Origin: Pseudonocardia sp. HH130630-07
GTDB lineage: Bacteria; Actinomycetota; Actinomycetes; Mycobacteriales; Pseudonocardiaceae
Assembly: GCF_001698125.1 (NCBI RefSeq)
Contig: NZ_CP013854.1
Location: 1,860,001 to 1,924,000 of the forward strand
Direction: 5' to 3'
Length of the DNA stretch: 64,000 nucleotides
This document shows, one piece after another, positions 31,558-33,642 of the stretch. A model generated the notes under the pieces. That model was not told the DNA's origin. It was given only the letters and a program-made list of their open reading frames with translations, and did no database searches. Made by a program: the position numbers and the translations under genes. The number at the start of each line of letters is the position of its first letter. The first letter of the stretch is position 1.

Positions 31558-31812
31558 TTACACGTCCGGGAGGCGTCGGGCGCAAACCGACTCCGGCGAT
31601 CGGTACCCCGTCGTGAGCGCGTACCGCGCGGCGGTCGCCACCTGCGCGAGCCGCGCCAGGGTGTCCGGGTCGGAGAACTGCAGGCGTAACGCACTCCCGG
31701 TGTGCACGAGGGCAGAGCCGATCTCGATCTCGATCATCTGCTCGACCGGGAGCAGGTCGTACGACACGCCCGTACCCGGCTCGACCTCGACGTAGGCATC
31801 CACCTTCATCAC
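31558..31812 (-). CDS. Small hypothetical protein, divergent from the XRE/DUF6879 genes
   Basis: 84-residue protein beginning MMKVDAYVEVEPGTGVSYDL. It is moderately hydrophobic and compact (VEQMIEIEIGSALVHTG, LRLQFSDPDTLARLAQVATAA), with normal amino-acid balance, unlike the noise frames around it. I do not recognise the family. An upstream region rich in A/T (31880-31960) separates it from the small protein, DUF6879 and XRE genes on the other strand, so it could share their operator. GGAGGGTTCGTG precedes the ATG. Confidence 0.7.
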   Translation of the reverse strand: MMKVDAYVEVEPGTGVSYDLLPVEQMIEIEIGSALVHTGSALRLQFSDPDTLARLAQVATAARYALTTGYRSPESVCARRLPDV

Positions 31813-31920
31813 GAACCCTCCGCCTGTTCACCGGCGATCATGGAGCGTCGCGATGCAGATGACTCGTCGGCTTCAGCGGTTGCCACAAGAGGGATCCTGC
31901 ACCACTGCGCGGGCAGGTGC

Positions 31921-31950
31921 GAGAAATTTTAGAACTTCTCAGAGAACTTC
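31921..31950. promoter_or_regulatory. Candidate operator with AGAACTTC direct repeat
   Basis: AGAACTTC occurs at 31931-31938 and 31943-31950, spaced exactly 12 bases, and GAGAA (31921) with TTCTC (31936) gives an overlapping dyad. The local composition is unusually A/T-rich. The site lies between divergent genes and about 100 bases upstream of the small protein gene, where the XRE regulator encoded downstream could bind. This is inference from pattern and position. Confidence 0.45.
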
Positions 31951-32046
31951 CACCTGTATGGCCGATATTCTCCTCGTCGGGCTCGCGCTTCCATGGAACC
32001 GGCCGATGCCGGCCGAGCAGCAGAACGCCGACCGTGGGAGACCGCT

Positions 32047-32262
32047 ATGACGACGATCCGATTCCTGGGCACCACCTCGACCGGTGGCAGTTGCCCGACC
32101 GCGTACGAGACCGAGACCGAGTACCTGATCCAGGGCTCGATCGTCACCGATCCCGACGTCCTGGCCCAGGTCGCCGCCCGCGGTATCGGTATCCCCGATC
32201 ACGAGACCGTCGTGGCGATACCGAAGGCACTGGCGACCTTCCTCCCCCGGGTCGCCGAGTGA
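32047..32262 (+). CDS. Small conserved protein of the DUF6879/XRE cluster
   Basis: 71-residue protein starting TTIRFLGTTSTGGSCPTAYE and ending in a helix-like IPDHETVVAIPKALATFLP. I recall similar small proteins upstream of DUF6879 and XRE genes in other actinomycetes, but its function is unknown. The gene starts at ATG 32047 and its stop overlaps the GTG of the DUF6879 gene, so production is coupled. The Cys in GGSCPT might be functional, but no motif proves it. Confidence 0.75.
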   Translation: MTTIRFLGTTSTGGSCPTAYETETEYLIQGSIVTDPDVLAQVAARGIGIPDHETVVAIPKALATFLPRVAE

Positions 32263-32777
32263 CGCGGTGGGTCGAGCCCGGCCCGGACTTCGCCGGGCTG
32301 TTCGCCACCTTCCGGCGTTCGGCCTGGCGGTTGGAGACCTACCCCGCCTACGAGGTGGACGAGGAGATCGAGCCGTTCCGGCGCTTCGCCGAGTCCGGTG
32401 AAGTAGACGTGTCCTACCTCTCCGAATGGCTGATCGGCGTCGAGAACGCCACCGTCGCCGGCCGGCGCTTCGAACGGGTTCGGGTGCTCGCCGACCCACC
32501 GACGCCGTACCAGGATTTCGAGATGGCTGTCGCTGCCCACAATGCGGCGGCCGGAGAGGACATCCGCAGCCTGACCACAGAGCAGGCGAGCTCGCTCGGA
32601 CTGCCGCAACGGTACGACTTCTGGATCTTCGACGACGCCCGGATCGCGATCCTGCACTTCTCACCGGCGGGCCGTCTCCTCACCACCGAGGTGCGTGACG
32701 ACCCCGATACCCTCGCCCGACACCTCGCCTGGAAGAACAGCGCCTGGCAACACGCCGAGCCGAGTCCACCGAGTTGA
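32259..32777 (+). CDS. DUF6879 family protein
   Basis: 172-residue protein of a family found beside XRE/DUF5753 regulators and DUF397-like small proteins in actinomycetes. Diagnostic features are FAGLFATFRRSAWRLETYPAY near the N-terminus, RFERVRVLADPPTPYQDFE in the middle and a C-terminal YDFWIFDDARIAILHF. The activity is unknown. It is translated from GTG 32259, overlapping the small protein gene, and lies 22 bases upstream of the XRE gene, so the three form an operon. Confidence 0.85.
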   Translation: MTRWVEPGPDFAGLFATFRRSAWRLETYPAYEVDEEIEPFRRFAESGEVDVSYLSEWLIGVENATVAGRRFERVRVLADPPTPYQDFEMAVAAHNAAAGEDIRSLTTEQASSLGLPQRYDFWIFDDARIAILHFSPAGRLLTTEVRDDPDTLARHLAWKNSAWQHAEPSPPS

Positions 32778-32799
32778 CGACACCCCGACCGAGGAGCCC

Positions 32800-33642
32800 G
32801 TGACCGACATCGACCGTCGCCGCGTCGAGGTCGGCGGCCGCCTCCGTGCGCTGCGGGACGAGAGCGAACTCTCCGGGCGGCAACTCGCCGACCGACTCGA
32901 ATGGCCGACCTCGAAGATCTCGAAGCTGGAGACCGGCCGGCAGATCGCAGGCGACTCCGACGTCATCGCGTGGTGCGCTGCCACGGGTGCATCGGAGTCG
33001 GTTGCGGCCGAGCTGATCGAGACGTTGGTAGATCTCCGGGTCGAGTACGCGTCGTGGCGTCGCACCCTGGCGAGCGGCGGCTATCGCAACCGTCAGCGGC
33101 GAGCCGCCACCGACGAGCAGGATGCCGCCCGGATCCGCGCGGTCGACTTCGGCGTCGTGCCCGGCCTCGTGCAGATCCCCGACTACGCCCGGCATGTCTT
33201 CGCTCTGCACGCCGACCTGCACGGACTCGACCTCGACGTCGACTCTGCCGTGGTCGCGCGGATGACTCGGCAGAATCTCCTGTACGACACCACCAGGACG
33301 ATCGAGATCCTCGTGGCCGAGGCCGCCCTGCGGTACCCGGTCGCCCCGCCCGAGATCATGGCGGCCCAGCTCGACCGGCTGACCGCGCTGATCGGCCTGC
33401 CGTCGGTCCGGTTCGGGATCCTCCCGCTGAACCAGCAGATGCCGTACATGCCCATGCACGGCTACTGGCTGCTCGACGATGTCGTTCTGATCGAGAACAT
33501 CACCGCCGAGATCCGGATCGAGGACGACGACGAGGTGACCGTCTACCACCGGCTCACCGACCGTTTGTGGACGGTCGCCGCCGAACGCGATCGGGCGCGG
33601 GCAGTGCTCGCCGGTGTCACCGCCGACCTGGCGGTCCGTTGA
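32800..33642 (+). CDS. XRE-family regulator with DUF5753 domain
   Basis: 280-residue DNA-binding protein. The helix-turn-helix (RALRDESELSGRQLADRLEW then TSKISKLETGRQ) occupies residues 15-48. The remainder is the DUF5753 effector domain (DFGVVPGLVQIPDYARHVF ... FGILPLNQQMPYMPMHGYWL), the type seen in WhiJ-like actinobacterial regulators. Such proteins usually control the small partner proteins encoded next to them. GTG 32800 has GAGGAG only three bases upstream, a short spacing that argues for low expression or coupling to the preceding gene. Confidence 0.9.
   Translation: MTDIDRRRVEVGGRLRALRDESELSGRQLADRLEWPTSKISKLETGRQIAGDSDVIAWCAATGASESVAAELIETLVDLRVEYASWRRTLASGGYRNRQRRAATDEQDAARIRAVDFGVVPGLVQIPDYARHVFALHADLHGLDLDVDSAVVARMTRQNLLYDTTRTIEILVAEAALRYPVAPPEIMAAQLDRLTALIGLPSVRFGILPLNQQMPYMPMHGYWLLDDVVLIENITAEIRIEDDDEVTVYHRLTDRLWTVAAERDRARAVLAGVTADLAVR

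What the first reader, a model, noticed from the sequence alone, without database searches (positions are those of the whole stretch)
32047..33642. Operon of small protein, DUF6879 protein and XRE/DUF5753 regulator
Three overlapping or closely spaced genes encode a conserved 71-residue protein, a DUF6879 protein and a WhiJ-like regulator, with an 84-residue protein gene diverging across an A/T-rich region. The layout resembles a regulator plus effector pair, such as a toxin-antitoxin, development or stress module. No activity is established for DUF6879. It is the strongest candidate for an undescribed system here.
Basis: partly seen in the sequence, partly recalled or inferred. Interest (0 to 1): 0.75.

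Follow-up and report, generated by a model that had tools for sequence, protein, structure and literature searches.

The report
Mobile three-gene dead-phospholipase-D regulator module
Next to each other in this soil bacterium sit three genes for a tiny protein, a protein predicted to be shaped like a phospholipase D enzyme but lacking its catalytic residues, and a DNA-binding regulator with the same kind of dead-enzyme domain; the trio recurs across actinobacteria, on plasmids and in a phage, and is most likely an unstudied chemical-sensing gene switch.

Summary
In detail: 32047-33642 carries a 71-aa protein, a DUF6879 protein and an XRE/DUF5753 regulator; the divergent 83/84-aa gene is an orphan and not part of it. 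The trio is conserved: 69 of 80 named actinobacterial loci, five copies in this genome, plasmids and Streptomyces phage Kromp. In 13 loci the small protein and DUF6879 share one open frame. DUF5753 regulators split on the tree into a DUF397-linked and a DUF6879-linked side with little mixing, so DUF6879 takes the place of DUF397, the partner known from WhiJ/BldB. New here: predicted folds of DUF6879 (modelled on a Streptomyces relative) and of this regulator's DUF5753 domain both match the phospholipase D superfamily, TrmB included. The HKD motif is absent in 121 of 121 and 69 of 69 sequences; the families share a C-terminal segment (P=3.4e-7). Best explanation: an autoregulated sensor switch in which the small protein and the HTH-less dead PLD control the DNA-binding dead PLD. 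Toxin-antitoxin is possible but less likely. No experiment supports function.

The parts
32047..32262 (+). Small 71-aa protein of a conserved unnamed family (CPT.Y.T....VQG..VTDP......E..V.IP, read from the alignments); first gene of the module
   Evidence: No Pfam or NCBIfam family; own profile finds it upstream of DUF6879 in 74 of 80 loci; in one open frame with DUF6879 in 13 loci
32259..32777 (+). DUF6879 protein (172 aa): HTH-less, HKD-less, predicted phospholipase-D-fold protein; probable co-sensor
32800..33642 (+). XRE-family transcription factor with DUF5753 domain (280 aa); the DUF5753 part also has a predicted PLD-like fold
31915..31974 (.). Lowest-GC 60 bp of the window, upstream of the module: probable promoter/operator region
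   Evidence: GC 0.43 against window mean 0.744; no consensus sigma-70 site found
31931..31950 (.). 8-bp direct repeat AGAACTTC x2, start-to-start 12 bp, possible operator
   Evidence: short two-copy repeat, may be chance
31999..32016 (.). 8-bp direct repeat CCGGCCGA x2, start-to-start 10 bp, beginning 48 bp before the small gene's start, possible operator
   Evidence: 10-bp-period direct repeats are enriched upstream of the module (11 of 97 against 1.4 expected)
31558..31809 (-). Divergent 83-aa gene: neighbour, not part of the module
   Evidence: match in 1 of 60 genomes of the genus (its own); found only in L003, the window's own locus, among 34

Best explanation
The operon is a mobile, autoregulated transcriptional sensor module of the WhiJ (XRE-DUF5753) kind in which the usual DUF397 partner is replaced by a small protein plus DUF6879. 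SHOWN by computation: (1) the three genes travel together; (2) DUF6879 and DUF5753 have predicted PLD-superfamily folds without the HKD catalytic residues, and their C-terminal segments are related in sequence; (3) DUF6879-linked and DUF397-linked regulators lie on separate sides of the tree. INFERRED: (4) the XRE protein binds helically phased direct repeats upstream of the small gene and controls the operon, plus neighbouring genes where there are any (graspetide clusters, a radical-SAM/exonuclease/dTMP-kinase operon); (5) the DUF6879 protein, a dead PLD without a DNA-binding domain, pairs with the dead-PLD domain of the regulator and gates it; (6) a small ligand, or the small protein, binds at or near that interface, as the effector-binding domain of TrmB binds sugars. 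Steps 4-6 are untested.
Against: No binding, expression or interaction data. The small domain is modelled at low confidence (pLDDT 60-85) and its contact with DUF6879 is not resolved. The DUF6879 model is of a relative, not of the window's protein. No complex of DUF6879 with the regulator could be predicted. DUF6879 also occurs without this regulator, sometimes before a STAND-type protein instead, so it is not only a WhiJ co-factor. DUF6879 versus DUF397-linked DUF5753 is weak (P 0.003; hmmsearch 0 hits below 1e-3), and the LuxR-type set does not match the DUF397-linked regulators over the sensor domain at all. The similarity to the cognate DUF5753 covers only about 60 residues. Most upstream regions (68 of 97) show no exact direct repeat of 7 bp or more at periods 9-24, and the repeats in the window could be chance. 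Tree loci were mostly fetched through DUF6879. Mobility and multiple copies also fit toxin-antitoxin or defence.
Confidence: 0.6

Rival explanations
1. Type II-like toxin-antitoxin module: DUF6879 is the toxin, the XRE protein and/or the small protein the antitoxin.
For: Compact, partly overlapping genes; several copies per genome, patchy distribution (26 of 60 genomes and 20 of 79, own genome included in both); plasmids (86 of 72,556 records) and a phage. PLD folds include nucleases. The related XRE-DUF397 pairs were once predicted as toxin-antitoxin (PMC2701414, passages).
Against: Catalytic HKD motif absent in all 121 DUF6879 sequences examined. An orphan DUF6879 without the neighbours exists in this same genome (L151) and elsewhere. 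Fourteen XRE/DUF397 pairs tested, none a type II toxin-antitoxin system (PMC10364602, abstract). No PADLOC match except over the HTH of the regulator.
Confidence: 0.12
2. Anti-phage defence or superinfection-exclusion cassette: the dead-PLD pair senses infection and the regulator switches on effectors next door.
For: Carried by Streptomyces phage Kromp beside its integrase and HTH genes; one plasmid copy lies beside a type I-E cas operon; in some loci the pair precedes an NB-ARC/TPR STAND-type protein or an exonuclease operon.
Against: None of the neighbour clusters tested (radical SAM, exonuclease, dTMP-kinase-like, methyltransferase and others) flanks the copies of this genome; PADLOC hits only the HTH of the regulator; defence-island enrichment was not tested.
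Confidence: 0.13
3. Dedicated pathway switch for natural-product (graspetide/RiPP) or nucleotide-modifying gene clusters, with stand-alone copies as relics.
For: Isoaspartate-methyltransferase genes (two scanned: graspetide-type and FxLD-type) downstream in 10 of 80 loci; radical-SAM-like and DnaQ-type exonuclease genes in 22 of 80, 14 of them also with a dTMP-kinase-like gene. DUF397/DUF5753 genes are known to co-occur with some graspetide groups (PMC13097080, passages).
Against: Most of the 80 loci carry neither; the five modules of this genome stand without them.
Confidence: 0.15

Closest known systems
XRE-DUF397 pairs (WhiJ/BldB, Scr1/Scr2) of Streptomyces
   Same: Regulator of the same XRE-DUF5753 family; small partner next to it; many paralogues per genome; actinobacterial
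   Different: Partner is DUF6879 plus a different small protein, upstream instead of downstream; no sequence similarity of the small protein to 18 DUF397 sequences (hhalign probability 0.8%); regulators fall on a separate side of the tree
TrmB/TrmBL2-type regulators with a PLD-like domain
   Different: DNA-binding domain is XRE, not the TrmB winged helix; the sensor-like fold is present twice, once on the regulator and once on a separate HTH-less protein
Phospholipase D superfamily nucleases (Nuc, NucT, SauUSI PLD domain)
   Different: HKD motif lost; the Lys position is Asp in 120 of 121 by my register
Type II toxin-antitoxin systems with XRE antitoxins
   Same: Small mobile operon with an XRE protein
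   Different: No intact PLD active site; toxicity untested

Membership tests
DUF6879 (PF21806) | Profile match above curated cut-off | tested here: met
   165.6 bits against 23.9
XRE-DUF5753 regulators (WhiJ-like) | XRE HTH plus DUF5753 domain | tested here: met
   HTH_31 52.4 bits, DUF5753 117.9 bits; the NCBIfam equivalog Sco1979 is not met (97.9 against 350 bits)
XRE-DUF397 pair | DUF397 gene next to the regulator | tested here: not met
   15 DUF397 matches in this genome, none at this locus
Phospholipase D superfamily (fold) | PLD-like alpha/beta fold | tested here: met
Active phospholipase D / PLD nuclease | HxKx4D catalytic motif | tested here: not met
   0 of 121 DUF6879 rows, 0 of 69 XRE rows
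TrmB family | TrmB winged-helix DNA-binding domain on the same chain | tested here: not met
   No TrmB model up to E 1 in DUF6879 or the XRE protein
Type II toxin-antitoxin | One gene toxic alone, neutralised by the other | not testable with these tools
   Needs expression; inferred unlikely from lost HKD and orphan copies
Known anti-phage defence systems | Match to PADLOC component models over the specific domain | tested here: inconclusive
   Only HTH-region matches for the XRE protein, none for the others; library of 2023
Autoregulated operon | Regulator binds operator at its own promoter | tested here: inconclusive
   Direct repeats of period 10 enriched upstream across loci; binding not testable

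The most novel reading that the evidence does not exclude
A two-part chemical sensor made of two dead phospholipase-D domains: DUF6879 and the DUF5753 domain of its regulator form a mixed dimer that places a ligand pocket where active PLD enzymes have their shared catalytic site, with the small protein as lid or second signal. The same reading would give the whole XRE-DUF5753 family (WhiJ, Scr1) a sensor fold, turning 'domains of unknown function' at the heart of Streptomyces development into testable ligand-binding domains.
Probability: 0.3. Interest if true: 0.82.

Novelty: new variant of a known kind. Interest (0 to 1): 0.62.

Why it matters
DUF5753 regulators (WhiJ and relatives) sit in the control of Streptomyces development and antibiotic production (PMC10294661, section 14; PMC10364602, abstract), and the passages read here name no signal for them ('ligand' does not occur in PMC10294661). 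A PLD/TrmB-like fold for DUF5753 and for its partner DUF6879 suggests a concrete hypothesis: both are ligand-binding, catalytically dead PLD domains. The DUF6879 module is widespread, mobile (plasmids, one phage), in some loci heads biosynthetic and nucleic-acid-enzyme genes, and has no paper in the library searched.

Tried and rejected
Small protein as a DUF397 homologue: rejected at sequence level (hhalign probability 0.8%, 18 DUF397 sequences). Divergent 84-aa gene as part: rejected. DUF6879 as a homologue of a PDB protein by sequence: best E 0.21, a ribosomal protein. DUF6879-XRE fusions in one frame: none found in 114 loci. A consensus sigma-70 promoter or an intrinsic terminator at the locus: none found. 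Paper searches for DUF5753 with 'phospholipase D-like', for a TrmB/PLD sensor link in Actinobacteria and for the radical SAM/thymidylate kinase/exonuclease operon returned nothing. The fold of the small protein stays open: low confidence in the only model, and the structure matches do not cover it. The Foldseek 'viral' search was weak: one match at E 0.001 or better, unnamed, TM-score 0.35; rows 2 and 3 are titled PLD and rows 4-7 are poxvirus envelope lipase/envelope proteins that I recall as PLD-like (probability 0.98-1.00). The plain Foldseek 'pdb' search was never run because the machine was busy. In the regulator's structure search the best rows are HTH domains; the PLD rows come between them.

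Rows dropped: in the tree duplicates of own-genome loci, identical sequences and regulators covering under 75% of the profile. L031 had no DUF6879. Two of the three 'no partner' rows on the DUF6879 side of the tree (L044, L072) do have a DUF6879 match next door that the gene caller missed. The drawing of the tree was seen only for the quick tree; the careful tree gave the same number of label changes, but its drawing was not printed. In the class-wide count I set aside six weak, non-family loci (L176-L179, L187, L188).

Full report
WHAT IS THERE. The window lies in an unnamed 6.68-Mb genome. One 'same genus' relative, G030, has a contig of 30,408 bp, the length of the contig of Pseudonocardia sp. 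CNS-004 that holds L090, and the two regulators pair in the tree, so the genus is probably Pseudonocardia (inference). Three genes on the + strand follow each other: a 71-aa protein (32047-32262), a 172-aa DUF6879 protein (32259-32777, 4-nt overlap) and a 280-aa XRE-DUF5753 regulator (32800-33642). The 60 bp at 31915-31974 are the most A/T-rich of the window. The divergent 83/84-aa gene was found in 1 of 60 genomes of the genus, its own, and is left out.

CONSERVATION. DUF6879 matches occur in 26 of 60 genomes (25 over the family cut-off) and in 20 of 79 genomes drawn from the class (18 over the cut-off); both counts include the own genome and a few weak matches. In 80 named loci (best 80 of 354 confirmed matches) the small protein and the XRE regulator flank it in 69, the small protein alone in 5, the regulator alone in 2, neither in 4. 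Among 33 loci from relatives, the six own copies included, 21 have all three, 7 the regulator without a small protein found by the profile, 2 the small protein only, 3 neither; in one of those 7 (L005, larger stretch L154) a divergent small protein was found by eye. From the listing I count 16 of 22 fetched class-wide loci with both neighbours and 18 of 22 with the small protein; not every match was fetched. In this genome five of six copies are free-standing trios, one of them on a 119-kb contig. Plasmids: 86 of 72,556 records. Phages: 1 of 50,697, Streptomyces phage Kromp genes 31-30-29, next to its integrase and HTH genes. The four plasmid loci inspected show the trio: the small protein by profile in all four, the regulator by profile in two and by annotation in the other two. 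In 13 loci (12 Streptomyces and L025) the small protein and DUF6879 lie in one uninterrupted frame, which argues for a physical partnership; in one of these, L093, the small-protein match is split over two frames, so 12 are clean.

A PARTNER SWAP. DUF5753-type regulators are known with DUF397 partners: WhiJ/BldB and Scr1/Scr2 (PMC10294661, section 14 and passages; PMC10364602, abstract; PMC6262351, listing and start of abstract). In this genome 18 full-length regulators divide into 11 with DUF397 downstream, 5 with DUF6879 upstream, 2 with neither within 400 bp (one has a DUF397 about 1.1 kb off), none with both; 2 partial DUF5753 matches were dropped. A tree of 127 regulators is cut at the midpoint root by one branch (0.9 on one side and 0.12 on the other, SH-aLRT 99) into 30 rows (22 DUF397, 8 none) and 97 rows (92 DUF6879, 3 none called, 2 with both: L037, L038). 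The careful tree needs the same number of label changes, 6 for the DUF6879 label against 30.9 in shuffles. Caveat: most loci were fetched through DUF6879; only the own-genome set is free of that bias. The small protein is not a DUF397 homologue by sequence.

SEQUENCE LINK. Independently of the models, profile comparison links the last 60-odd residues of DUF6879 to the end of DUF5753 in its own regulators (probability 93%, P 3.4e-7), weakly to DUF397-linked regulators (10%, P 0.003), with 38 decoy families at 0.024 or worse and reversed controls at 0.075-0.35. Five matches to PF21806 below its cut-off turned up in regulators with a C-terminal HTH, LuxR-type (GerE over its cut-off) in three of them, one with a weak TrmB match. 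A profile of 28 such proteins matches DUF6879 with P 6.6e-8 and the DUF6879-linked regulators with P 3.2e-4; with the DUF397-linked regulators it aligns only HTH parts (P 0.0074); reversed controls 0.31-0.44. Divergence of DUF6879 across 76 loci follows that of DUF5753 (r 0.93) at least as closely as the HTH of the same chain does (0.89). Shared ancestry of whole loci explains part of this.

MECHANISM. The most economical reading is a WhiJ-type transcriptional switch in which a second, HTH-less protein of the same dead-PLD fold gates the regulator. PLD enzymes build their active site from two PLD domains (recalled), so a mixed DUF6879-DUF5753 pair with a ligand site at the interface is attractive. 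TrmB carries sucrose in an effector-binding domain joined to its DNA-binding domain (PMC4158304, passages), and that part of TrmB is among the structural matches; whether the sugar site lies in the PLD-like half was not checked. Operator: exact direct repeats of 7 bp or more at period 10 occur upstream in 11 of 97 modules against 1.4 expected, at period 20 in 5 against 0.7; over all periods 9-24 it is 29 against 17.9. Seven of the 11 begin 99-144 bp before the start of the small-protein match. The window has CCGGCCGA twice at period 10 and AGAACTTC twice at period 12. WhiJ9 binds three direct repeats, with data consistent with autorepression (PMC10294661). Outputs differ by locus: none of the tested clusters in this genome; radical-SAM-like and DnaQ-type exonuclease genes in 22 of 80, 14 of them with a dTMP-kinase-like gene; isoaspartate-methyltransferase genes in 10 of 80, of which two were scanned and are graspetide- and FxLD-type. 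The radical SAM call rests on sub-cut-off profile matches plus a CxxxCxxC motif read from the sequence. In four Micromonospora loci the pair precedes an NB-ARC/TPR STAND-type protein in place of the XRE regulator (one scanned; in L054 a 123-aa frame lies between); L017 looks the same by eye.

ALTERNATIVES. Toxin-antitoxin: mobility and layout fit; lost HKD, orphan copies and the experience with XRE-DUF397 pairs speak against it. Defence: the phage, cas-neighbour and STAND contexts are suggestive only. Pathway switch: plausible for some loci, not for stand-alone copies.

NOVELTY. No paper in the held library mentions DUF6879, PF21806 or PF19054, nor DUF5753 with 'phospholipase D-like'. Whether Pfam already places these families in a PLD clan could not be checked here. 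I call it a new variant of a known kind: the XRE-DUF5753 regulator kind is known; the DUF6879 trio and the dead-PLD assignment of both domains appear undescribed within those searches.

Noticed in passing
L051:9741-15653; also L044, L045, L049, L071, L074, L077, L092, L103, L110 and others: Recurring operon: small-DUF6879-XRE-radical-SAM-like (about 385 aa, CxxxCxxC)-DnaQ/RNase T exonuclease-dTMP-kinase-like-118 aa-about 200 aa, not every gene in every locus. Radical SAM plus exonuclease in 22 of 80 loci; it looks like an undescribed nucleotide- or DNA-modifying pathway.
   Followed up: partly
L039:9769-13169, L043, L050, L054, L017: Small+DUF6879 pair placed before an NB-ARC/TPR STAND-type protein (AfsR/HaaT-like in L039) in place of the XRE regulator.
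   Followed up: partly
L153:9581-10171: DUF5753-like protein without HTH directly downstream of a complete trio in this genome: a second case of an HTH-less dead-PLD-like partner.
   Followed up: no
L176, L177, L178, L179, L031: Regulators with a C-terminal HTH (LuxR-type in three) whose preceding domain matches DUF6879 below the cut-off but consistently; matches to L178 in 31 of 60 genomes, some covering only the HTH.
   Followed up: partly
L187:814-1860; L188:1471-2478: Proteins with an N-terminal hydrophobic part (my reading) and a C-terminal DUF6879-like domain (E 6.5e-8 and 1.5e-5).
   Followed up: no
L033, L041, L163, L181: The small protein occurs as two copies in tandem in one frame.
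   Followed up: no
L042, L053, L065: A second DUF6879 gene lies downstream of the isoaspartate-methyltransferase gene, separated from the first.
   Followed up: no
L151:7348-7866: Orphan DUF6879 in this genome with neither small protein nor DUF5753 neighbour.
   Followed up: no
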